Under the pieces are notes generated by a model that did not search any database, was not told where the DNA came from, and saw only the letters and a program-made list of their open reading frames with translations. Position numbers and translations under genes: made by a program. A stretch of DNA of 64,000 nt from Dermatemys mawii (taxonomy: Eukaryota > Chordata > Testudines > Dermatemydidae), in the NCBI GenBank assembly GCA_007922305.1, contig ML677365.1, forward strand, positions 14,500,506 through 14,564,505. Reading direction: 5' to 3'. Below, in pieces: positions 2,854-59,690 of this stretch (the stretch's first letter is position 1; each line of letters starts with the position of its first letter).

Positions 2854-5800
2854 CTAAAATTATATGCAAGTACAATGAAAGTTCATTATTTAAATATTAT
2901 TGAATAAGAATTTTAAAAAGACTTATCATATGTTCGGAGTGACACTGCACTGCTGCAGTTTGCTGATGATGCAAAGCTTCAAGAAGCTTTTGTTTATTCA
3001 GTATGTCACCTACAATACATATATTTTAATGTGTAAACATATATAAACATCCCTGTCACTAAGAATTATCAGTCTTTCTATTCATTTCACTCTATTGTAC
3101 CTTATGTGACTCATTTTGTAAACTGACTTTATTAGTCATCACAAAGGAATTTACAGCCTGGCAGTTTCTGTCAGAAATCTGTGGATAAGCTATGATGGCT
3201 AAATTGTGGTTCTTTTAACAATAACAACAATTCTACTCTTTTCATAAGGTATCACAACTCACCTAAACTGATGACATTTTCAATTGCCTCTGAGTACCTC
3301 AGCACAGCCTCTCCAAACTGTCCATTCTTAAATAACTCATTTCCTTCACTTTTCAGTTTTGCTGCAGTAGGAGGAAGCAAATTAGAAATGCTTTTCCCAG
3401 CTGATGAAGATTCTGTCTCATGTGAACTGGAGGTCTCCTTCTTTACATCATTGCTTTCATTCTTTTTTTTACCATTTAGATAACCATTAACTTCACCTTC
3501 ACGGTCGGGTAAATGTTCAATTGTCTTTTTCTCAGTTATGCCTTTTTTTATTCTACTCTCAGTGGACTCACTGTGCTTCTGCGTCTCTGACTTACAGCCA
3601 TCTCCTTTGCTGGAAAACTTTTTTTGTACATTCCCCATTTCACTTGTAGTTGCAATCTCGTCTCCCAGTAGTACATCAGTTTCTATAAGGAAGTTAATCA
3701 ACTAGGTCAGAGTTTGCATCATTGGAAGGAACTATTGTAAAGGCAAAGGAGGGGTGTATACCAAAGTCCACAGCATAAAACACTTCAGAAGTCTTCATTT
3801 ATAAACATTGATTTGCCACAGAAAACTCTCAGAACAGAGATTAATTTCTAGTAATAAACAATTTGCAATACATAGTAAGAATGTAATACTTTGTCAAATC
3901 TGTTTTCTCCTTGCTGAAGAACAACTTATAACCCCCCTTTTCTTACGTAATGGAATGGTACAAAATTTACCTTGAATTTAACCACTTAAACACTGAATGT
4001 TAAATAAAAGGCTGATACTTTAATTTACATGAAAATGCAGATTTGCAGTTTTTCCAATCAGCAAATCACAATTACTTGTCATGTTAGAATTAATACATCA
4101 GCACCAAATTAAACTGTTTTACTGATAGCTCATGAGCAAATATTACAGCTATCAAGGGATTCATTTTTTAATCACGATTTAATCACACTGTTAAATAACA
4201 GAATACTATTTACTTAAATATATTTGCATATTTTCTACATTTTCAAATATGTTGATTTCATTTACAACACAGAATACAAAGTATACAGTGCTCGTTTCAT
4301 ATTTATTTTCTATTACAAATATTTGCACAATAAAAACAAAAGAAACAGTATTTCAATTCACCTAATATAAGTACTGTAGTGCAATTTCTTTATCAGGAAA
4401 ATTTAACTTACAGTTGTAGAATTATGTACAAAAAATAACTGCACTCAAAAATAAAACAATGTAAACTTTAGAGCCTACAAGTCCACACAGTCCTACTTCC
4501 TGCTCAGCCAATTGCTTCGACAAACCAGTTTGTTTACATTTACAGGGGATAATGCTACCTGCCTCTTATTTGCAATGTCACGTGAAAGTGAGAACAGGTG
4601 TTTGCATGGCACTGTTGTAGCTGGCATCGCAATATATTTACGTGCCATATACACTAAAGAATCATATATTCCAGGGGTAGGCAACCTATGGCACGGGTGC
4701 CAAAGGCAGTAGGCAAGCTGATTTTCAGTGGCACTCACATTGCCCAGGCGCTGGCCACTGGTCTGGGGGGCTCTGCATTTTAGTTTAATTTTAAATGAAG
4801 CTTCTTGAACATTTTAAAAAACCTCATTTATTTTACATAAAACAATAGTTTATTTATGTATTATAGACTTATAGAAAGAGACCTTCTAAAAACATTAAAA
4901 TGTATTACTGGTGCACGGAACCTTAAATTAGAGTGAATAAATGAAGCTTCGGCACACCACTTCTGAAAGGTTGCTGACCCCTGATATATTCCTTTATGCT
5001 TCAACCACCATTTCAGAGGACATGCATCCATGCTGATGATGGTTTCTGCTCAAGAACGATCCAAAGCAGCGTGGACCAATGCATGTTCATTTTCATCATA
5101 TCAGTCAGATGTCATCAGCAAAATGTTGATTTTCTTTTTTGGTGGTTTGGGTTCTGTAGTTTCTGCATTGGAGTATTGCTCTTCTAAGACTTCTGAAAGC
5201 ATGCGTCATACCTCGTCCCTCTCAGATTTTGGAAGGCACTTGAGATTCTTAAACCTTGGGTCTAGTGCTGTAGTTATCTTTAGAAATCTTACATTGGAAC
5301 CTTCTTAGCATTTTGTCAAATCTGCTGTGACAGTGTTCTTAAAATTCAAATGAGACGGGTCATCATCCAAGACTGCTATAACATTAAATATATGGCAGAA
5401 TGCGAGTAAAACACGGAGGAGGCGGCATACAATTCTCTCCCAAGGAGTTCAGTCACTAATTTAATTAACACATTATTTTTTTAACAAACGTCATCACTAT
5501 GGAAGCATGTCCTCTGAAATCATGGCTGAAGCACGAAGGAACATACGAATGTTTAGCTTATCATTTAAATACCTTGCAAAACCAGCTACAAAAGTGCTAT
5601 TCGAACACCTGTTCCTACCTTCAGGGACATTGTCAATAAGAGGCAGGTAGCATAATCTCCCGTAATGTAAACAAACTTGTTTCTCTTAGCAATTGGCTCA
5701 ACAAGAAATAGGACTGTGTGGACCTGTAGGCTCTAAAGTTTTACATTGTTTTGTTTTTGAGTGCAGTTATGTAACAACAAAAAACCCCCACTACATTCGT

Positions 5801-8800
5801 AAGTTTCACTTGCACAATAGACTGCTCTACAGTCCTTGTATGAGATTAACTGAAAAATACTATTTCTTTTGTCATTTTTACCGTGCAAATATTTGTAATA
5901 AAAACATAAAATGAGCATTGTACACTTTGTATTCCCCATTGTAATTGAAATCAATATATTTGAAAATATAGAAAAACATCTAAAACATTGAACGAATTTC
6001 AATTGGTATTATATTGTTGTTTAACAATGGGATTAAAACTGTGATTAATTTTTTAAATCACAATTAATTTTTTTAGTTAATTGCATGAGTTAACTGTGAT
6101 TGACAGCCCTAGAATATATATATCTATCTATCCATCAGAAGTCCCCGTAAATAACATGGAAAGGAGAAATTTTTTGTTTTGTAATATATCAATATAGCTC
6201 AAGAAAGAGAGGTTTCATATGAAAGAAACATAAGGACAAAACATAGCCTTTTACGAGTTCAGATTAAAGACAAACAATAATGAAAATTAACCCTAAAATT
6301 AGCTTTAAACTATGTCCAGAAGATAAGAAAAAACACAAAAATCACTGTACCAGATGTAACCTTAGACAAATTCTTCATCTCTCAGAATGGCCTATCATCA
6401 GAGTATGTAGGTATTTAATTTTATTCATTAGAAGAGGTTTTGGAACAAATTGATAAACTAAACAATAGTAAGTCACCAGAACCAGATGGTATTCACCCAA
6501 GAATTCTAAAGAACTCAGATATGAAATTTTTAAACTATTATTTAAATTAACTTCTGTACCAAATAACTGGAGAATAACTAATGTGATGCCAATTTGTAAA
6601 AAGGGCTCCAGAAGTGATCCCAGCAATTACAGGCTAGTAAGCCCAACTTCGGTACCAGGAAAACTGGTTGAAACTATAGTAAAGAACAAAATTTTCAGAC
6701 AAATAGATGAACATAATTTGTTTGGGAAGAGTCAACATGGTTTTTGTAAAGGGAAATCGTGCCTCACCAATCGACTAGAATTCTTTGAGGGGGGTCAACT
6801 AGCATGTGGACAAGGGGGACCCAGTGGATATAGTGTACTTAGATTTTCAGAAAGCCTCTGACAAGGTCATTCACCAAAAGTTCTTAAGCAAAGTAATCTG
6901 TCATGGGATAAGAGTGAAAGTCCTCTCATGGACTGGTAACTAACTAAAAGATAGGAAACAAAAAGGTAGGAATAAATGGTCAGTTTTCAGAATGGAGAGA
7001 CGTAAATAATGGTGTCCCTCACGGGTTTGTAAAGGGATCAGTCCTATTCAACATATTCATAAATGATTTGGAAAAAGGGGTAAACAGTGAAGTAGCAAAA
7101 TTTGCAGATGACACAAAACTACTCAAGATAGTTAAGTCCCAGGCAGACTGCAAAGAGCTACAAAAGGATCTCACAAATCTGTGTGACTGGGCAACAAAAT
7201 GGCAGATGAAATTAAATGTTGATAAATGCAAAGTAATGCATATTGGAAAACATAATCCCAACTATACATATAAAATGATGGGGGCTAAATTAGCTGTTAC
7301 CACTCAAGAAAGATCTTGGAATCGTGGATAGCTCTCCGAAAACATCTACTCAATGTGCAGCAGCAGTCAAAAATGCAAACAGAATGTTGGGAATCATTAA
7401 GAAAGGGATAGATAATAAGGTGGAAAACTTTATATTGCCTCTACGTAAATCCATGGTACACCCACATCTTGAATGTTGCATGCAGATGTGGTCGCCTCAT
7501 CTCAAAAAAGATATACTGGAATTGGAAAAAATGACCTGCTATGACACATTATCAGTTAGTCCGTCTAACTTTGCCTATTATTCTAATCTCCAACAGGAAA
7601 GCAACATGTTCTCACAATAAAACACTTGTGAGAAGGCTCTCTAAAAAAGACTCAGATTGGGCAGAGAGAAAATTCAGACATGGCATAAAGATGCAAAAAG
7701 GAAGGAAATGGAGGTGCACCATAACATTTAACTGGAGGGTTGTGTCCTTCTCAATTATCAAGAACCCAGCAGCCCAGAGTAATGGAAAGCCATACTGGAA
7801 GTAAATGGATAACAGTCTTCAAAACAGTGGGAAAAATAAATTAAAGTTGGTTCTGTGGCCTTGGGTGCCACTGTAAAATTAGAAAAAAGACTGGGCTAAA
7901 GATACAGTGAGAGCTGGATATTCACACTGCTTAAAACCTTAAAATTGCTAAGATCTGTATCCCAGATAACAATTACATAGACAAACATATTACTTTTATC
8001 TCCACTGCCACTTTCATGTTCTTTTCCATTTCCTTCTCTTTCTTCATCACCATCCGACTCCTCTATATCTTGAATAAGTATTCTTTTTCCTTTGGTGTGA
8101 GTCTCAGATACAGGCTCTAAATCTTTCAGCTTCTGCTCAATATCTGACAGATTTTTCTGCAGTATAGCAATAATAGCAATTTAGAAGTCTTAAAAAAATT
8201 AGCATTTAGATAGTGCTTTACCTTTGCAAAGCACTTTCTATTGTCTAAATAATGCCTACAAAACACCTCTGAAGTAACTACTCAGTATTACCTTAAAAAT
8301 AAGAAAATATAAATAGGTTAAATGACTTCTTCAAGACTATATAGTGAGTCAGTTTCAGAACTGGGATTAGGACTAAATTGTTTCTGGCTCCCATTCCAAT
8401 TATATATCCAATGCCTACTGCATATACATATTATATAAACCCATATGTACCATTTGTTAATAAATTCTTTGGACCATAGATTGTGTCTACCCACCTCTGT
8501 GTGTAGATAGTGCAACACTGACAATGGAACCAATTGGCACAGTCTGTAAGGACAGAGACTAACTAATTTAAAGCCTAAAAACAATGAATTCCTACACTGG
8601 AACTTTAGAAAAGGCCTAAAAATAATTTCATCAAAATCCACAGTATGGAGAGCCCAATGTCTGCTAGGGACTTACTTTCTTTTCAAATAGTTTAACTAAC
8701 AGCTAGGATCAACCATAGAAAATTATAATTTCTTACAGAGTCTAGTAAAAACACACTGCTGGCTGAAGAAAAGTTATGCTGGTCTTACAAGAGCTACGAT

Positions 8801-33397: not shown

Positions 33398-35038
33398 TAG
33401 GGCTGTCAAGCTCTTTAAAATTAATCATAATTGAATGATTAAGAAAATTAATTGCACTGTTAAATACAATATTTTTGTATGTTTTTCTACATTTTCAAAC
33501 CTATCCATTTCAATTACAACACAGAATACAAAGTGTATACACAGTTCTCACTTCGTATTTATTTTTATTACAAATATTTGTACTGTAAAAAAGTTTTTTA
33601 AATTTACCTAATACAAGTACTGTAATGCAATCTCTATCATGAAAGCTGAATTTACAAGTGTAGAATTATGTACAAAAATACTGCATTCAAAAATAAAACA
33701 GTAAAATTTTACAGCTTGCAAGTCCACTCAGTCCTATCTCTTGTTAAGCCAATCACTCAAACAAGTTTGTTTACATTTGCAGGAGATAATGCAGCCCACT
33801 TCTTGTTTACAATGTCACCTGAAAGTAAGAGCAAGCATTCGCACAGCACTGTTGTAGTTGGCGTTCCAACATATTTACGTGCCAGATGCAGTAAAAATTC
33901 ATTTATCCCTTCATGCTTCAGCCGCCATTCCAGAGGACATGCATCCATGCTAATGATAGGTTCTGCTCTACAACAATCCAAAGCAGTGCAGATCAACACA
34001 TGTTCATTTTCATCATGTGAGTCAGATGCCACCAGCAAGGTTGATTTTCTTTTTTGCTGGTTTGTGCTCTGTAGTTTCGACATTGACTGTTGCTCTTTTA
34101 AGACTTCTGAAATCATGCTCCATACCTCATCCCTCTCAGATTTTGGATGGCACTTCAGTTTCTTAAATCTTGGGTCGAGTGCTGCCGCTATCTTTAGAAA
34201 GCTCACATTGGTACCTTCTTTTCATTTGGTCAAATCTGCTGTGAAAGTGTTCTTAAAATCAAATGTGCTGGGTCATCATCCGAAACTTCTACAACATAAA
34301 ATATATGGCAGAATGCAGGTAAAACGCAGAGCTGGAGACACAGTTCTCCCCCAAAGAGTTTCAGTCACAAATTTAACTAACACTTTTTTCTTTTTTAAAA
34401 CAAGCAACTTCAGCATGGAAGCATGAAGAGGCATACGAATATTTAGCAGATCCGGAATGTAAATATCTTGCAATGCCGGCTACAAAGTGCCATGTGAATG
34501 CCTCTTCTCACTTTCAGGTGACATTGTAAATAAGAAGTAGGCAGCAGTCTCTCTCCTAAACATAAACAAACTGGTTCAGCCAATCGCTAAGAGAAACAAG
34601 AAGTAGGTCCGAGTGGACTTGTAGGCTCTACAGTTTCACATTGTTTTGGTTTTGAGTGCAATTATGTAACAAAAAAAAAATTTACATTTGTAAGTTATAC
34701 TTTCACCATAAAGAGATTGCACTACAGTACCTGTATGAGGTGAATTGAAAAATACTATTTATTTTATCATTTTTACAGTGAAAATATTTGTAATCAATAT
34801 AAAGTGAGCACGGTACACTTTGTATCCTGTGTTGTAATAGAAATCAACATATTTGAAAATGCAGAAAAACATCCAAAAATATTTAATACATTTCAATTGG
34901 TAGTCTACTAATTGGTTTAATTGTTAATTAACAACGTGATTAATTGGGAGTCTATTAATTGGTAGTCTATTGTTTAACAATGCAATTAATTTTTTTAAGT
35001 TAATCGCATGCATTAACTACGATCAATCAATATCCCTA
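33398..35038 (-). mobile_element. hAT-family fold-back element, copy 2
   Basis: It starts TAGGGCTGTCAA and ends with a decayed inverse (tatcccta). The flanks caaagaac and tgaagaac agree at 6 of 8 positions. The left arm (about 33398-33955) and right arm (about 34413-35038) are inverted copies of each other. The centre carries a further upstream part of a hAT transposase. It lies between SPAG1 and POLR2K. Confidence 0.78.
33757..34206 (-). pseudogene. hAT transposase C-terminal fragment
   Basis: A 149-codon minus-strand frame has the hAT hallmark AAALDPRFKKLK and then the dimerisation-domain motif (LARKYVGTPTTTVLCE, usually ...P-A-T-S-x-x-x-E). The N-terminal zinc finger and first catalytic residues are missing, so it is only the C-terminal part. 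The plus-strand open frame over the same region is its antisense shadow. Confidence 0.75.
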
Positions 35039-47103: not shown

Positions 47104-48409
47104 TCAAATGGCTATTTTAAAAGCTATTTAAAACTATTTATCAATTAATGCTAAAACAGCTTTGTCTCTTTCCCTTCTAGAAGGTTTTCGCAGTCTCTGC
47201 TGGAAGAGTGCCTTTCAATTCATCTTGCTGATTCATATTGCTTCTCTTAGCATGTTTTTGTTGTGTACTCTGTAGGGGCTCTGCTCTGAGCACTCCAGAC
47301 ATGTTCATCTAGGTCTACCAAGTCGCTGTGCCCTGTTCTGATCCACTTACTCTGGAGGTGTTTGGACCTCTTGCATGTGGTCCTCCCCCTCTGCTGGTAC
47401 TTGGTCCCAATACAAGCCTTGTTATGTATCATCTCCTCTTTACCCTAGCCTACACTTAAAAGCATTTATTATCCTACCGGCAAAACCCTACCTCCCACGT
47501 TACTGTTCAGCACTCTCTGTCTGCCTTATCCTTGCCCTTTACCTAAGCGTTAGTTTCCCCAGCACTGTGTGCTGTGATCTTGTTACTTCAAAGAAAAACT
47601 CTCCCCTTTACACATCCACCACTAGCAAATGGAATAACAACAACAAAAAAAAGACCTTTCATCTATGGGGTACTGGGTAATTCAATGCCCCAAATCCATC
47701 AAAGGAATATCCTACATAACAGAGGGTGGCACAACTACTTTCTTTTCTTTTCTAGTAGTGGGAGGCCCAACTGGCTCAGCATTCTTGGTACACTGAAGAC
47801 ATCCTACTCTGGTAAATGGCCTCTGAAGATGTATTTTTGTCTGGTATGAGAGACCAGTGACAATCTAGCAATTTGAGAAATATACCTAGAGTCTGAAACT
47901 GTTATACGCCACTGTAAAGCTTGGAATCAAAAGATGTGTAACTTTTTGCTAGCTTTGGTGGCTCATGAGATCTTTGTCCTTATGTTTACATTATTCAAAA
48001 TATTCTTACATATCTGCTGTGTCCTGGGTTTGCAAAATAGTAACTTGGCCTGTGATCTTGTAAGTCTGACCTGGGAAGGAGAGGGAATACTTTTTCGTAT
48101 GTATACGGAAATAGCAATCAGTGCCCCAGGTAATCCATATCCTTCAGAGAGAAATCACATAAGTATTTAGAAGCGTCTGTTGTTCCCTTGAAAAGAATGT
48201 GTCCTTTTTGACTGTGCAAAAAGCTTATTACTATGGGGCAGAGTATCTTTTTCTCCCCACATACACGGGGAAAGTGCTTAGTTCCCCAGTGCCCCAAAAT
48301 TGTATAACCACAGAGTAGGAACTATATTGCCCCATGTCACCAAGAGACTGAGCAGAAATTCTTGGAGGTTTCTGTTCAAAGTTATAAATAAAATATCTTG
48401 GAGCAGTGT
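47104..48409. other. FBXO43 5' intron, unclassified
   Basis: No recognisable element and no convincing coding frame in this stretch. Confidence 0.5.
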
Positions 48410-49199
48410 TGTCATAAGTGTGAAGTAGCCTAGAATTAGTGTTTACCTGTAAGGGGTTAAGCTAAAGGTAACCTGAGAGGTGGACAACTGACCAATGAGA
48501 AATTCCTCAGGAGACAAAGGATTTTAAGTTTCAGTTTCTCTCCGGGTCTCTCTCTGTTCACCTCGGCTATGGGATGAACACAGCTATGTCTTTCACTATA
48601 ACTATAAGATTCTATTAAGTATTGTAGTCAGTAAGTCTACCTTCTCTTTATCACTTGGAGAGTTCTCAGTGGTGAGTGTTGGCTGGGTGCTTCTTGATAT
48701 TGTAAGCTTCAGCAGAGATATCAACTGTGGGAGAAAATTGCCTCGGGGGAGAGGTTTGGTTTCTGAATCCTTTTGTTGATTATGGTAGATGCTGTTCTAT
48801 TGATGGTTATAAGGGATTTATTCCTTTCCTATTTTCTTTTATTAAAATCTTCCTTTTAAGAAGCTGACTGCTTGTTTTCCATTGTGTAAGATCCTGGTTT
48901 TGGATCGGGCACGTCTCGCAGGATCAGGCGAGGTTTGGGTTTTTTATTCTCTCAAGCTTTCCAGGGAAGGAAGAAGTTTGGGGGGGGTTAGTGGAAAGGG
49001 AAAGAAGGGTCCCAAACTACCCTAGACCTAGTTTGGTGGTGGCAGTGTACCAGGTCCAGATATAGAAGAATTTGTGTTCTGGGGAAAAACATTTTAACCC
49101 AAGCTGGTAAAATAGGCTTGGGGGGGGGGGTTATTTCTTTTTTCATGCGGGTCCCCACATCTGTACCCTAGAGTTCAGAGTGGGGAGGCAATCCTGACA
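48410..49199 (+). repeat. Long terminal repeat of the palindromic element
   Basis: 790 bp, with TGTCA at the start and TGACA at the end. A tattaaaatcttcc motif in its centre could belong to the R region, but the U3/R/U5 borders are not certain. Confidence 0.78.
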
Positions 49200-49217
49200 T
49201 GGTGGCAGAGGTGGGAT
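49200..49217 (+). promoter_or_regulatory. Primer-binding site, tRNA-Leu type
   Basis: TGGTGGCAGAGGTGGGAT directly follows the LTR. Its complement ends in CCA and, from recall, matches the 3' end of a vertebrate tRNA-Leu at 17 of 18 positions. Confidence 0.6.
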
Positions 49218-50317
49218 GAAATTTTGTGAATCTAAAACACAGAATTTTGCAGAAGCAGTTTTCTCAAAGGTGAGACCTCAGCAAGTACAAAGCAGGTAAG
49301 GGTGTTAAGTTAAACACTACAGGAAGTCACTCTGGTAAAACTTGTTCCGCAGGTCTTGAAGCTGTGATAGCTCCACGCTTTGTCTTTTTCAGTTGCCTGA
49401 GGGCAGGGAACTGAAGGTTTTTTTGAGTGGGTTTTCTCCTGCTGGATAGCAGAGAGTAGCCCAGGTTTGCAGTTAAGAGTTAATAGGCTCGTTAAGTGCT
49501 AGGCAACCATCCCAGGGGTCCCTGGGGTGGAGAGGGGGAACTAGTCAGTTCAGTTTTCTGAGAAACAGTGTAGGGGGTCTTTCTCCCTCTGCTGGTAGGA
49601 ATAAATCCCTTATAACCATCAATAGAACAGCATCTACCATAATCAACAAAAGGATTCAGAAACCAAACCTCTCCCCCGAGGCAATTTTCTCCCACAGTTG
49701 ATATCTCTGCTGAAGCTTACAATATCAAGAAGCACCCAGCCAACACTCACCACTGAGAACTCTCCAAGTGATAAAGAGAAGGTAGACTTACTGACTACAA
49801 TACTTAATAGAATCTTATAGTTATAGTGAAAGACATAGCTGTGTTCATCCCATAGCCGAGGTGAACAGAGAGAGACCCGGAGAGAAACTGAAACTTAAAA
49901 TCCTTTGTCTCCTGAGGAATTTCTCATTGGTCAGTTGTCCACCTCTCAGGTTACCTTTAGCTTAACCCCTTACCGGTAAACACTAAATTCTAGGCTACTT
50001 CACACTTATGACAAGTGTAGTGACCAACATTAGACAGTCCCTTTATGTAACTGGAACTCAACTGTATCCAGTGTTGAAGGACTGAAGGATTTGAACACAT
50101 TTGTGGAAGCTTGCTGACTCTCTTGATAATTAAGTAGGATTATCAGACAGCAGGGATCCCTCTTTCTTTAAACAAAGCAAAAGCATTTGTGGTAGTTTTT
50201 CTTTTCTCCCATCTTTCCATCAGCGCTAATAAAATAGACTAATTTAGTGAGTTTCAATCCCCTATTGGCTCTTAAGAACTGAACTGGGGGAGAGTAGAGG
50301 GACACTATGTACATGAA

Positions 50318-50390: not shown

Positions 50391-50804
50391 ATTGTCTATG
50401 TTCAGACTGAACCCATTCTCCATGGATGATGACTGGTAGATCAGATGTCTAATCAGATGTGTGGGGTTTTTTTCACTTAATTTCTCTTATGCCATGTTTT
50501 TTAAGCTGTTCGTCCCCATTATTTTGCATCAGCAAAGTATTTACCATCTATTTATCTTTTTATATATCAGTAACGAATCCATCATGCTAGAGTGTGAGTG
50601 CTGTTTCCACAGAGATGCAATAAAAATATTTTCACTATGGTTACTATTTTGATGGTGAAAGAATGTTATTTAAATTAAAGGAAATAATCTTAGATATAAT
50701 TTGATATCCATTAGTAACTATATTTAAAATAAGTTCTTTATGGCTCATTCTAGAGATAAAATGCTGTCTTCACTTTACAGAATCAGAGAAATTCCAAGTG
50801 AAAG

Positions 50805-52321
50805 ATGTCAGAAAGTCACTCAGTGCTGTCTATTCTTAAAAGAGGCAGGTTGACTTCTCCCAGCAACAATGTGAAATACTCCAGCTTTAAAGACTCTTGT
50901 TCCACCTCCATATTTCATGACAGTGGATATAATGCATCATTAAAAGATTCTAGCTTTGATCATACTGTTGCAGAACATAAAGATGAACTGAGACGTCTAT
51001 CTTTACTACATGAGTACTCTGAACATTCACACTCTAATTTAGTAATTCCAGTGTTGTCTCCCATTGAAAATGAAAAGTATTCTATCTCCTTATCTGAAAA
51101 AAAAGAGGCAAATGTAGCTACAGATTTTTTTGAAACTCCTAAAGTAAGTAAAAAAGACTCATCACTGCGTAGGAGACTGCTTTTGTCCAAAACTGCTTTG
51201 GGAGGAACTGTAGGATGCTTTGAAAGACAAGCCAATTCTTCAGATTGCAGTAGGAAAAAAACATTATCTCATGTTCTCAGTTTTGAAGAAAGACTTTCAA
51301 AAAGTTCTTCGTATTCTCCAAGAGATAACACTTACAAACCTCTAGCTACTAGCACTTTAAAAACTGAGGAGTCTAGTCCTGGTTGCCAAAAATTGAGGCT
51401 TGCCTTTTCACAGCAAAGGACTTCTACAGTAGATGAGTCCAAATGTAAAAACAACTTGTTGTCAGTACCTGAATGTTTATCTCCAATCCACCATAATATC
51501 TCTAAGGACACTATTATTGACAAGATTCCTAATGAGTTCAGTGATTGTGCTCTTACAAACATTAATGATCAAAGCACCTCCCTGGATTTGCTTAGAACTC
51601 CTACATGTATGTTGTGTGAGACAAATGAGGGTAAATTTCTGACTCCAGTCAGCAACCTAATAGCAGATTTTAATTTTGATTTACTTGACATAAATACTCC
51701 CCCTACTCATGTGGTAAGTGACTTGAACCTTTCAGTGCCTGAAGATAGTGGGTTTAATTCCCTTGGCTTAGATAAATCAGAAGATTCCTCTTCAGATCAT
51801 GAGGGATCTTTCCAAGAACTCCTTCAAAAACAGAAGGAAGTTTCCAAACTTCTGGATGCTAAAAGAAAGTCAAGAAAACTAGACCGAGTGAGGAGGTTAT
51901 CCACCCTTCGGGAACGGGGTTCACGATCAGAGACAGAGGAAGACTATGATATTACGCTAATTAATTCAGAATATAAATTAAAAGTAGCAAGAGACCCCGC
52001 CAGTGAAGACATTGGATTGGTTTTTAATGAGGAGAATAGTGGAGATTTGGTTCTAAATCTTGGGGATTTATCAAGAACACCTGCTTTACAAGTAGTCCAT
52101 GAAATCTTCATGCAAAGCAAAAGAAAAAGACCAGAGCAAAATGGACTTTTGGAGAACACCGAGAGAGCTGAAATGTCTGTGTTAGAATATATTCTTGCTG
52201 GACTCATAGGCAAGAAAATGGGCCTTGAAAAATTAGATATTTTAACAGAATTAAAATACAGAGATCTAAAGCATATTCTTGCTATAGTTTTAGGCGCTTT
52301 GACTGTGGAAAGCCTATGCAG
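50805..52321 (+). CDS. FBXO43: FBXO43 coding exon 1
   Basis: The large exon encodes residues 1-505 plus 2 nt. An acceptor (tcactttacag) at 50779/50780 lies upstream of the ATG, and the donor is GCAG|GTAAGA. It encodes the regulatory N-terminal region and the first half of the F-box, ending TVESLC. Confidence 0.95.
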
Positions 52322-54807
52322 GTAAGAAATATAACTGTATGTTCTTATCTTTTTCAAAATTTTGAAAATAAGGGTTTTTTCCGTGCTAATGAGTTGGGGA
52401 GCTGGAACAGTGGCCTGAATAGTATTATTCCTATGTAACAAAAATAACATTAATTTACTACTGATGTATTTGAAGTAACAAAGAGATTAAAAAACTTAAT
52501 TACAAGTGACATTCTATCCAATAATAAAGACTCAGGATATTAATTCCCATTTTTTTTGTAATTTATTAATATATTCATGAATGTTAAGCTCATCTTCACA
52601 GAGCATGTTTATGATGCTCCAATATTTTGTTGCAAGTCTAAGATATTATTTTAGTAAAAAATATCAGCAACATAACAAGACCCCAGAGACGTCTGGTGTA
52701 ATAATAGGTTGGGGCCTCTTCCCAGTTCCAAAATTCACCTCCCTTCAGTCCCATCCCCATCACCTAGGTCTTCTTCAGCTCCCTGCCTATCCAGATACCT
52801 AGCTTCTCCCCACAACTTCTGCTTCCTTCAGTCCAACCATAGCTCCTCCAGACCTGATGCAATCCTCCCACCTTAGTCCACTCCAGCCCTCTCCCACACA
52901 CACACTCAGTAGCCTTGTTCCAGCCCCCTAGTTCTGCTCCAACCCTCTTCCCCTCAGCTTTCAATGCGCCCCACTCTCCTACCCCATGCAAAGCAGTCAA
53001 TGATTTTGTTACCTTGTGTTTGGAGTGGGGGGAAATCTCCTGTATTTAATTCCACGTAGCGATGCAGAAGAATTTGTGAGGCAATTATGTTTCGTGTCAA
53101 GTCTATAAAGTGGAGTTTGTTACAGTATATTGCAATATTCTGCAAAATGATCAAGATAACTTTGTCATGATAAATTTGGAAAGGGTTAATTTTTAGTATT
53201 AGGATCTTAAACTATATCATTTGTAAAAATTTAAGCAAGATTTGAAAGGTGGGTGTTTTTTTGTTTTTGTTTTTGTTTTGTTTCAGTATTTGGAAAGTAA
53301 GCAAGAACTGGCGTGAAATTGTTATACAAGACAAAAATGCATATCTCAGGAGAAAGCTGTACATAAAACAGCTGAAGGCAGAAGCTGGGGTAATGTATCT
53401 CCCGAAGGAAGTATTTTTCTACCTATTGGGCATGTTGGAAAGATTTGGGGACAGGGAAAGAATATAAAGATCCTAGTGACAATGAGAGTTGTAAAATCTT
53501 TACCCAGTAGATATAATTGAGAGAACCATTCTGAGTAAAAATGTCATTTTTTAGTTGTGGGTGTGGTTTTTTTTGTGTGTTGTTGTTTTTTTTTCCTCTA
53601 GACACACTTCAAGGAAAATGTTTAAAATGTGTAGTGCTTGGAATCAACAGGACTTTCCTCAAATTATAACAAATTTAAAGTGAATGAGATTTTGGGCTTA
53701 AAATCCTGTCCCTTCCTCTTAATCTTTCATATGCCCCATTTTAACACTACCTTTTTTTTTTTTTTTCTTCTTCCATTTTAATTGCTGCTTGCAGGTCCAG
53801 TAGGACTAAAATTGTGACTCCTTCCCAATTGTTTGTTTTGTTTTTTCTTTGTGGCTTAATTTATCTCTAGGGTAGGGATTCTTTGAAGTGACCTGACGTG
53901 AATTGACTTCTAACCCTAACCCTTCCTATAAGCAGTTGGAAGTATTTACTATTCAGAAATCTGAAGTAGGAAAGATATCAGAGGGAGTTGCAAAGAGAGA
54001 TGAGGTCTTGTAAGTGGTATCCTGAACTGATATTTATAGACCACAATATTTCCTCCTATGGATCCTGTTTTGTCTACCTATCCATTAAATACTAAACGTT
54101 TACTTGACAACATTTACACATGTTTTGTACCTCTTTATTGTGAAAAATAAAAGTAGTTCTAAAACAAAAACAAACAAAGCTATATTAAACAAAGCCTGGT
54201 TATCCTGAAGCTGATTTTTCTTCTTATAATCATCATCTGTAACAGGGATGTCTCTTGCATGTTGAAGATGCTGCCACAAGACTTAATATTCTAAGTAGAT
54301 CTGCTTTAAGACCTGTTCAAGCTCAAGCTAAAACTGCTGTGTTACATACACCACTTTCTTGCAATGAGTTTTTAACACCTAGAGGATGCAGTTCTGTTCA
54401 CCAGTCAACTAGTAAGCAAGAAGAGTACCTTAAGGTAAGCAATGCAGCCAGTTGTTAGCATTGAAAATAAAGATTACTTAAGATGAATCTTAGACTGCTT
54501 AAGATGTACAGTAAAGAACTGCAGGTATTAAATGTCATTTTCTCCCCTCTTGACACAGATTGCCAAAACTCTTTTTATTGATGAAGCTTTAAAACCTTGT
54601 CCCAGATGTCAGTGCCCAGCTAAGTATCAGCCCTTAAAGAAAAGGGGACTATGTAGCCGAGAAGCCTGTGCATTTGACTTCTGTATTTTGTGTTTGTGCA
54701 CCTTCCATGGGTCAAAAGAATGCAGTAGTGCATCTGCAAAGCAGCGAAATAAAAAAGATGCTCTTCCAGGAAGTGCCCAAAGCAAGAGAAATTTAAAACG
54801 ACTCTAA
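50805..54807 (+). CDS. FBXO43: FBXO43 (EMI2/ERP1), APC/C inhibitor (complete)
   Basis: EMI2 holds vertebrate eggs in metaphase II by inhibiting the APC/C ubiquitin ligase, until calcium signalling destroys it. Four coding exons, 50805-52321, 53287-53389, 54246-54434 and 54559-54807, join in frame to 685 residues (human about 708). Visible parts are a DSGYNAS motif at residues 39-45 and DSGFNS at 314-319 (SCF-beta-TrCP-type degrons); basic RRRLLLS at 122-128 and RRLST at 363-367 (possible CaMKII/basophilic kinase sites); an F-box at about 472-520; a Cys-rich zinc-binding region with C617, C620, C635, C640, C645, C648, H653 and C658; and the C-terminal RL tail (residues 684-685) used to bind the APC/C. 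FBXO5 (EMI1) is the paralogue. The length, the tail, and SPAG1 and POLR2K as neighbours favour FBXO43. The start is the first ATG, 25 nt after an acceptor. Confidence 0.95.
52322..53286 (+). other. FBXO43 intron, no recognised element
   Basis: A C-rich stretch at about 52690-52990 looks like repeat filler but lacks terminal repeats. The rest is AT-rich. Confidence 0.5.
53287..53389 (+). CDS. FBXO43: FBXO43 coding exon 2
   Basis: 103 nt after tttgtttcag. It completes Ser506 and encodes [20 protein letters not shown] and [14 protein letters not shown], the end of the F-box and a RxxL stretch that resembles the EMI-family D-box. The donor is GGG|GTAATG. Confidence 0.93.
54246..54434 (+). CDS. 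FBXO43: FBXO43 coding exon 3
   Basis: 189 nt, 63 whole codons, from catctgtaacag|GGA to AAG|GTAAGC. It encodes a linker including [14 protein letters not shown] and [12 protein letters not shown]. Confidence 0.92.
54559..54807 (+). CDS. FBXO43: FBXO43 last coding exon (zinc-binding region and RL tail)
   Basis: 249 nt after tcttgacacag, ending in TAA. It encodes [19 protein letters not shown] and the rest of the IBR-like Cys-rich domain, then a basic tail ending KRNLKRL. Confidence 0.95.
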
Positions 54808-58859: not shown

Positions 58860-59690
58860 CAGCCGTCACAGTTCAAAAGCGAGTGGTGATAACCTTCTGG
58901 AAGCTTGCCACTCCAGACAGCTACCAGTCAGTCAGCAATTAGTTTGGAGTGGGTACATCTAAAGTGAGGGTTGCAGTGATGCAGTTGGCTAACGCAATCA
59001 TTGAACTGATGCTGTCAAGGGTAGTGACTCTGGGAAATGTGCAGGCCGTGGTGGATGACTTTGCAGCAATGGGGTTCCCGAACTGGCGGTGCTATAGACG
59101 GGACACATATCCTGATCCTGGCACCGGACAAACAGTGCTGCGAGTACATGAACCGCAAGGGGTACTTTTCCATGGTCCTGCAAGCACTGGTTGATCACAG
59201 GGGATGTTTCACCAACGTCAACGTGGGTTGGCCAGGCAGGGTTCATGACACTCGTGTCTTTAAGAACTCTAGCCTTTTCAAACAGCTGCAGGAAGGGACT
59301 TTCTTCCCAGACCAAAAAAATTATTATTGGGGATGCTGAAATGCCGATTGTTATCCTTGGGGATCCGGCCTACCCATTAATGCCCCGCTTCATGGAGCTG
59401 TTCAACTACAGATTGAACAAATGCAGAATGGTGGTAGAGTGTGCTTTTGGTCATCTCAAGGGACGCTGATGCAGCTTACTGACCTATTCAGATCTCAGCA
59501 CCAGAAATATTCCCATTGTTATTGCAGCTTGCTGCGTGCTCCACAATCTCTGTGAGAGCAGGGGAGAGGTGTTTATGGTGGGGTTGGAGGTTGAGGCAGA
59601 CTTCCTGGCCACTGATTATGTGCAGCCAGACACCAGGACGGTTAGAAGGGCCGCCCCGACACTGCGTGCATCAGAAAAGCCTTGACAACT
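58860..59690 (+). pseudogene. Harbinger (HARBI1-like) transposase remnant
   Basis: Pieces in three frames give a HARBI1-type order: a helix-turn-helix-like VVITFWKLATPDSYQSVSN segment, GAIDGTHILI (first catalytic Asp, about 59080-59110), GWPGRVHDTRVFKNSSL (second Asp), and RMVVECAFGHLKGR (catalytic Glu, about 59425-59465). The frame changes at about 59050-59100 and 59330, and a TGA follows GR at 59467, so the gene is dead. The three DDE positions themselves remain. HARBI1 enzymes cut and join transposon ends at 3-bp sites. Confidence 0.85.

What the first reader, a model, noticed from the sequence alone, without database searches (positions are those of the whole stretch)
48410..50013. Retroelement integrated with two U3 ends: a palindromic LTR insertion
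Both outer ends are the same LTR start (TGTCATAAG), in inverted orientation, and a perfect 5-bp duplication (agtgt) flanks them. A normal element has U3 at one end and U5 at the other. The arms (48410-48825 and 49597-50013) are nearly identical, and there is a primer-binding site but no coding sequence. A simple route is that plus-strand DNA, extended through U3-R-U5-PBS-leader, switched onto another plus-strand strong-stop DNA and copied it back to its exact 5' end. Integrase would then see two valid U3 ends. The outer ends and duplication are seen directly; the mechanism is inference.
Basis: partly seen in the sequence, partly recalled or inferred. Interest (0 to 1): 0.82.

Follow-up and report, generated by a model that had tools for sequence, protein, structure and literature searches.

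The report
Palindromic two-U3 retroelement insertions in turtle
In a turtle genome, one family of retrovirus-like elements has repeatedly made mirror-image DNA copies with the same integration end on both sides, and at least eight of them appear to have been inserted into chromosomes by the normal integration machinery.

Summary
48410-50013 is a 1604-bp insertion with a perfect 5-bp duplication (AGTGT). Both outer ends are the U3 start of an LTR; the 416/417-bp arms differ by one substitution and one indel. Order: complete LTR, primer-binding site, leader, then U3 inverted.

It is not a one-off. The same turtle genome holds at least seven more U3-to-U3 insertions of this LTR family, each with its own perfect 5-bp duplication. 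Six inner junctions were read and give five switch points; at four of the five, leader and antisense U3 share 4-10 nt (one by eye). Ordinary copies read through. In three of the five copies whose two arms were compared, both arms carry the same copy-specific variants.

Best explanation: nascent plus-strand DNA extended past the primer-binding site, switched onto a plus strand (its own or a sister) and copied it back to the exact U3 end; integrase then joined two U3 ends to the chromosome. The molecular steps are inferred; the repeated ends and duplications are shown.

Palindromic unintegrated retroviral DNA is known (recalled). Recurrent germline integration with two U3 ends looks like a new variant; ten searches of a partial paper library listed no description.

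The parts
48405..48409 (.). left target-site duplication AGTGT
48410..49199 (+). complete LTR (TGT...ACA, 790 bp); 28 solo copies elsewhere in the genome measured by script are 762-792 bp with exact 5-bp duplications
48410..48825 (+). left arm: nearly all of U3
48808..48815 (+). TATA-like box TATAAGGG; the predicted start of R is about 30 nt downstream, so the inverted arm would end near the U3/R boundary (by eye, inference)
48841..48846 (+). ATTAAA, possible poly(A) signal of the LTR (by eye, inference)
49200..49217 (+). primer-binding site TGGTGGCAGAGGTGGGAT; complementary to a tRNA-Leu 3' end with one mismatch (tRNA letters recalled, not tested)
49218..49596 (+). non-coding leader; 89-93% identical leaders lie in 39 other scored places of the genome
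49597..49600 (.). switch point: AGGA belongs both to the leader (ordinary copies: TGGTAGGATTAAAA) and to antisense U3 (AGGAATAAATCCC)
49597..50013 (-). right arm: inverted U3, LTR position 416 back to 1
50014..50018 (.). right target-site duplication AGTGT

Best explanation
The insertion is the germline trace of an aberrant reverse transcript with two U3 ends. Ordinary reverse transcription made plus-strand DNA U3-R-U5-PBS and, after the second strand transfer, extended it into the leader. There its 3' end left the minus-strand template, annealed through a few bases to U3 of a plus strand (itself or a sister) and copied it to the plus strand's 5' end, the polypurine-tract-defined U3 end. If the second plus strand is a separate molecule, the product is a duplex with a correct U3 end on both sides. 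Integrase then made an ordinary concerted insertion with a 5-bp duplication. The same kind of accident happened repeatedly in this family, at several switch points. Shown: two U3 ends, own 5-bp duplications, several junctions, short overlaps at most junctions, ordinary copies reading through. Inferred: strand polarity, template identity, timing and the enzymes.
For: Eight U3-to-U3 insertions in one genome, each with a perfect 5-bp duplication: window C43 AGTGT; C57 GAAAT and C70 AGGCT; C31 GTAAC and C71:7.39M GACCC; C71:0.53M CCTGT, C692 GGTTC, C18 GGAGT. Junction overlaps between leader and antisense U3: C43 AGGA, C57 AGAAAG, C31 CTGAGAA; C71:0.53M CAAAAGGATT (by eye; the 10-mer is shared by antisense U3 and an ordinary copy; the script reported a 5-base gap because of mismatches). 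Of 40 scored hits to the C57 junction only C57 and C70 run across it; 38 stop at query base 143-144, the junction. At least 2 of those 38 (C71:0.53M and C9:7.87M) are themselves rearranged farther on. 17 of 20 leader copies read downstream continue without inverted U3. Both arms share copy-specific variants in C43, C31 and C71:7.39M. The window copy carries LTR subfamily markers (134C, 537A, 551T, 706G, 716G) found wholly or mostly in LTR copies SL028, SL029, SL031 and SL042 and in neither C57 nor C70.
Against: C57 and C70 share one junction, and C692 matches across the C31 junction at 93%; independent accidents would need hot spots, or these pairs share descent. At C71:7.39M the overlap is 3 nt by eye, and the script found a 4-base gap instead. 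C57 and C70 show no variant common to both arms, so they do not test self-copying. Gene conversion between arms could also create shared variants. An intramolecular snap-back would give a hairpin with one U3 end, needing a further step. Leader and antisense U3 are not more alike than leader and sense U3 (longest exact ungapped matches 11 against 10 nt, the sense control also has 13 of 14; local scores 18 against 19, and 10 of 300 shuffles reach 18), so no special complementarity explains recurrence. The number of two-U3 copies is not a census: each search scored 40 of 265-1525 candidates.
Confidence: 0.78

Rival explanations
1. End joining before integration: two linear cDNAs, one broken in the leader and one in U3, were joined head to head by microhomology-mediated repair, and the product with two U3 ends was integrated.
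For: Short overlaps at most junctions are also typical of microhomology joining; it uses the same ends and gives the same 5-bp duplications.
Against: Both arms share private variants in three of five copies, so both broken molecules would have to be sisters. The six junctions read all lie between leader end or gag start and antisense U3, but my searches started from leader and U3 and favour finding such junctions, so this counts for little; I raised this rival from 0.12 to 0.14 for that reason.
Confidence: 0.14
2. A self-propagating family: one founder with two U3 ends moves as such, by integrase or with help from an ordinary element, like a DNA element with long terminal inverted repeats.
For: C57 and C70 share a junction; C692 matches across the C31 junction at 93%.
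Against: Five switch points among six junctions read. The window copy's LTR and both arms belong to another subfamily than C57 and C70. Leaders of C43, C57 and C70 are not closer to each other than to other rearranged copies: C43-C57 19, C43-C70 22, C57-C70 14, C70-C71:7.39M 12, C70-C9 13 differences; no ordinary leader was aligned there. In C43, C31 and C71:7.39M the arms share copy-specific variants.
Confidence: 0.06
3. Rearrangement of ordinary proviruses after insertion (inversion or fold-back repair ending at the shared TGACA of the LTR ends).
For: TGACA is common to both LTR ends, so one such repair could land on the terminus without losing the duplication.
Against: Eight of eight copies end exactly at the U3 start on both sides with intact duplications; in-situ events would rarely stop there.
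Confidence: 0.01
4. Assembly fold-back artefact.
For: Near-perfect inverted arms; no reads could be examined.
Against: Flanks outside the arms differ and carry target duplications; arms of the five copies compared carry 1-16 substitutions; the design recurs at eight loci on seven contigs.
Confidence: 0.01

Closest known systems
Palindromic unintegrated retroviral DNA (Olsen and Swanstrom 1985; Olsen et al. 1990)
   Same: Inverted duplications of LTR and leader sequence attributed to aberrant reverse transcription (content recalled; neither paper is held; the 1990 title was seen in a reference list).
   Different: Those are unintegrated or cloned molecules (recalled); here eight integrated copies carry target duplications.
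Autointegration products with an inverted segment (Shoemaker et al. 1980; title seen in a reference list)
   Same: Inverted LTR-containing retroviral DNA made before integration.
   Different: Autointegration joins an LTR terminus to an internal site (recalled). The six junctions read here contain no LTR terminus: leader or gag start joined to internal U3.
Solo LTR
   Same: Same LTR family, same 5-bp duplications.
   Different: A solo LTR has one U3 and one U5 end and no leader. A two-U3 copy has no direct LTR pair and cannot collapse to a solo LTR by LTR-LTR recombination.
Foldback or MITE-like DNA transposons with long terminal inverted repeats
   Same: Inverted arms and a short target duplication.
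   Different: The arms are U3 of an LTR family, joined to R, U5, primer-binding site and leader.

Membership tests
LTR retroelement (retrovirus or Ty3/gypsy type; which of the two was not tested) | LTR bounded by TGT...ACA | tested here: met
   37 whole LTRs of the family aligned; flush ends by script in 28 of 35 single LTRs
LTR retroelement (retrovirus or Ty3/gypsy type; which of the two was not tested) | constant short target-site duplication | tested here: met
   5 bp at 8 of 8 two-U3 copies. Single LTRs: exact in 28 of 35; of the other 7, 2 are exact behind a changed LTR end, 3 match 4 of 5, 1 matches 4 of 5 after nine extra primer-binding-site bases, 1 LTR is truncated
LTR retroelement (retrovirus or Ty3/gypsy type; which of the two was not tested) | primer-binding site next to the LTR | tested here: inconclusive
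   TGG-starting site directly after the LTR; C57 and C70 have one extra T in it; match to tRNA-Leu is recalled only, no tRNA was found in the window
Ordinary provirus | two LTRs in direct orientation, one U3 and one U5 outer end | tested here: not met
   both outer ends are U3
Ordinary provirus | gag-pol coding region | tested here: not met
   longest stop-to-stop frame listed 83 aa
Palindromic retroviral DNA from aberrant reverse transcription | inverted U3 ends around a unique centre, with junction overlaps | tested here: met
   one of five switch points has only a 3-nt overlap by eye
Palindromic retroviral DNA from aberrant reverse transcription | made during reverse transcription, before integration | not testable with these tools
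   inferred from ends, duplications and junction diversity
Terminal-inverted-repeat DNA transposon | one conserved inner structure, spread by descent from one founder | tested here: not met
   five switch points among six junctions read; leaders of C43, C57 and C70 do not group

The most novel reading that the evidence does not exclude
Two-U3 palindromes are a regular by-product of this family's reverse transcription, and some of them (C57/C70, C31/C692) can be regenerated from their own RNA by the same switch, so that they form a semi-autonomous retroelement with two U3 ends. I first thought that built-in complementarity between leader and U3 programmes the switch; the sense control scores as high, so that part has no support.
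Probability: 0.1. Interest if true: 0.85.

Novelty: new variant of a known kind. Interest (0 to 1): 0.65.

Why it matters
If right, it shows in a natural germline that an LTR-element integrase can insert DNA with two U3 ends precisely and repeatedly, so one U3 and one U5 end are not required. It offers sequence fossils of plus-strand fold-back or template switching, a step otherwise seen in unintegrated DNA (recalled). LTR finders that look for direct repeats could miss the class, and such copies cannot collapse to solo LTRs, so they may be over-represented among copies that keep internal sequence (inference). Long inverted U3 arms could also give double-stranded RNA (inference).

Tried and rejected
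Secondary deletion in the window copy: after I read its short leader as an 80-bp deletion between AGGAATAAA repeats. The ordinary copies printed have AGGATTAAA there, so a direct switch at AGGA is simpler; the deletion is not excluded (C57 itself has AGGAATAAA).

One mobile palindromic family: considered, weakened.

U3 kept alike by resupply from a helper: U3 differs less than R-U5 among copies, but the 40 hits were selected for U3 likeness, so this is not evidence.

Built-in leader/U3 complementarity: tested against sense U3 and shuffles, no excess over the sense control.

C9:7874328 has leader, gag start, inverted U3 144 to 7, then sense U3 204 onward: another rearrangement, not counted as two-U3.

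Other inverted-arm repeats of the window (4168-6050, 33467-34945): diverged, different ends.

Viral-contig pattern scans found nothing. Ten paper searches were answered; none listed a description of the thing, one search returned nothing and unrelated papers. Searches (search; reading) were rejected for a short term. The search for the window copy's own junction did not complete (in a first form; 111, 114, 118, 121, 124, 126, 128, 131, 133, 135, 137), nor was one for the C71:7.39M junction, so whether other copies share those junctions is unknown.

Full report
What was checked. The window sequence at 48201-50220 was read and its arms compared. The insertion is 48410-50013 with AGTGT on both sides. 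Left to right it holds a complete LTR (48410-49199), a TGG-starting primer-binding-site-like stretch (49200-49217), a non-coding leader (to 49596), and U3 inverted (49597-50013). The arms align over 416 positions with 1 substitution and 1 indel. No frame listed inside is longer than 83 aa.

Host. The open frame 50802-52325, 0.8 kb downstream, is F-box only protein 43, 92-93% identical to Chrysemys, Macrochelys and Chelydra and 86% to Pelodiscus: a cryptodire turtle (inference). The genome held is 1.81 Gb in 1030 contigs.

The LTR family. U3 as query gave 1457 candidates, 40 scored. They represent 38 insertions, because C43 and C57 each show both arms. Stretches of 4.5-9 kb were fetched for all 37 outside the window. 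3 of 38 are two-U3 copies: window C43, C57 and C70. The other 35 show U3 and R-U5 of this family and no leader; one of them, L044, matches only LTR positions 1-663. 28 of the 35 have an exact, flush 5-bp duplication by script. Looking at the other 7: L034 and L036 have exact duplications behind a changed LTR end, L019, L022 and L038 match 4 of 5, L031 matches 4 of 5 after nine extra primer-binding-site bases, L044 is truncated. Most or all of the 35 are therefore solo LTRs of an LTR family with 5-bp duplications.

Three copies aligned. C43, C57 and C70 have the same order, LTR, primer-binding site, leader, inverted U3, with AGTGT, GAAAT and AGGCT duplications. C57 and C70 keep about 80 more leader bases than C43.

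Ordinary copies and other junctions. The leader as query gave 299 candidates, 40 scored. I read up to 570 bases downstream in 20 of the 38 hits other than C43 and C57. 17 of 20 read on into what looks like the gag start (ATGACAGG..., by eye) with no inverted U3 match. 3 of 20 turn into inverted U3: C31, C71:7.39M and C9. C31 and C71:7.39M end in U3 on both sides with GTAAC and GACCC duplications. C9 is a different rearrangement. So 4 of the 22 leader-bearing loci examined (20 plus C43 and C57) are two-U3 copies.

More copies. The C57 junction as query (265 candidates, 40 scored) is crossed only by C57 and C70; the other 38 stop at query base 143-144. Two of those 38, C71:0.53M and C9, are rearranged farther on. 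The C31 junction as query (1525 candidates, 40 scored, 41 rows) revealed C692 (whole junction, 93%), an inverted U3 pair at C18:5.53M, and, together, leader followed by inverted U3 at C71:0.53M. Short stretches at their ends show U3 ends and duplications GGAGT (C18), CCTGT (C71:0.53M) and GGTTC (C692). The interiors of these three were read only in part: 141 bases at the junction of C71:0.53M, 324 plus 81 bases of C18, none of C692. In C18 the inverted arm, as far as read, runs from U3 through R and U5 to the antisense primer-binding site; its switch point was not read.

Junctions. C43: AGGA. C57: AGAAAG (C70 is at the same point; a base change shortens the exact overlap to one base by script). 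C31: CTGAGAA. C71:7.39M: ACC by eye, while the script reports a 4-base gap (ACTA). C71:0.53M: CAAAAGGATT by eye, while the script reports a 5-base gap (CAAGG) because of mismatches. On the U3 side two switch points lie near position 416-424, close to the predicted U3/R boundary, and two near 260-265; that of C71:0.53M lies elsewhere in U3 (the boundary is inferred). A search for special complementarity between leader and antisense U3 gave no excess over sense U3: longest exact ungapped matches 11 against 10 nt, with 13 of 14 for sense; gapped local scores 18 against 19, and 10 of 300 shuffles reached 18.

Arms. Substitutions between arms: C43 1 of 416, C57 2 of 416, C70 3 of 415, C31 1 of 259, C71:7.39M 16 of 264. 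The last is clearly older, so the event has recurred over time. Within the first 250 positions, variants absent from the 34 aligned single LTRs but present in both arms of one copy: 1 in C43, 2 in C31, 6 in C71:7.39M, none in C57 or C70. This fits arms copied from one U3; inter-arm gene conversion is an alternative.

Relationships. The window copy shares U3 134C and R-U5 537A, 551T, 706G, 716G wholly or mostly with LTR copies SL028, SL029, SL031 and SL042, and partly with SL038, whereas C57 and C70 have the other state in LTR and, at 134, in both arms. Leaders of C43, C57 and C70 do not group together against C31, C71:7.39M and C9; ordinary leaders were not aligned. C43's best leader hits after itself are two ordinary copies (609 and 606 bits) just ahead of C57 (605 bits): a near tie that gives no sign of a separate palindromic lineage.

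Mechanism. Precise U3 ends on both sides at eight loci need a template that ends at the U3 start. A PPT-primed plus strand has that end (established retroviral biology, recalled). Copying a plus strand from within U3, or in C18 from beyond U5, gives an inverted copy with that end. An intermolecular switch gives two duplex U3 ends directly; an intramolecular snap-back gives a hairpin that must still be opened. The direction of the switch cannot be told from sequence. End joining of broken cDNAs is the main rival.

Literature. Passages of PMC12789967, PMC1180852 and PMC1905944 were seen through term search; other papers only as listings. No listing described integrated copies with two U3 ends. 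The library lacks most subscription journals, so absence is weak.

Limits. No reads, no other turtle genome, no census. Each search scored 40 candidates and my queries favour junctions near the leader end. 

Noticed in passing
window 50802-52325 and 54532-54807: FBXO43: the first frame matches turtle FBXO43; the second holds an IBR-like zinc domain below the curated cut-off. The palindrome lies about 0.8 kb upstream.
   Followed up: partly
window 4168-6050 and 33467-34945: Two related, diverged elements with inverted arms of roughly 450-530 bp; they look like old long-inverted-repeat DNA elements, the first with another repeat inserted (by eye).
   Followed up: no
window 59028-59339: DDE_Tnp_4 transposase fragment (E 1.8e-17), Harbinger-like by recall.
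   Followed up: no
L068 and L052 (G000:C9, about 7.874 Mb): Copy with leader and gag start followed by inverted U3 144 to 7 and then sense U3 from 204 on; a different switch product.
   Followed up: partly
L031 (G000:C7, about 87.26 Mb): Single LTR followed by nine primer-binding-site bases and then a near copy of the left flank (4 of 5): perhaps insertion of an unprocessed or strong-stop-like end.
   Followed up: no
G000:C9:49329971-49335131: Leader and a sense U3 about 5 kb apart on one strand: probably an ordinary provirus (not read).
   Followed up: no
L024:1346-1700: R-U5 at 74% identity: a related, older LTR family near a single LTR copy.
   Followed up: no
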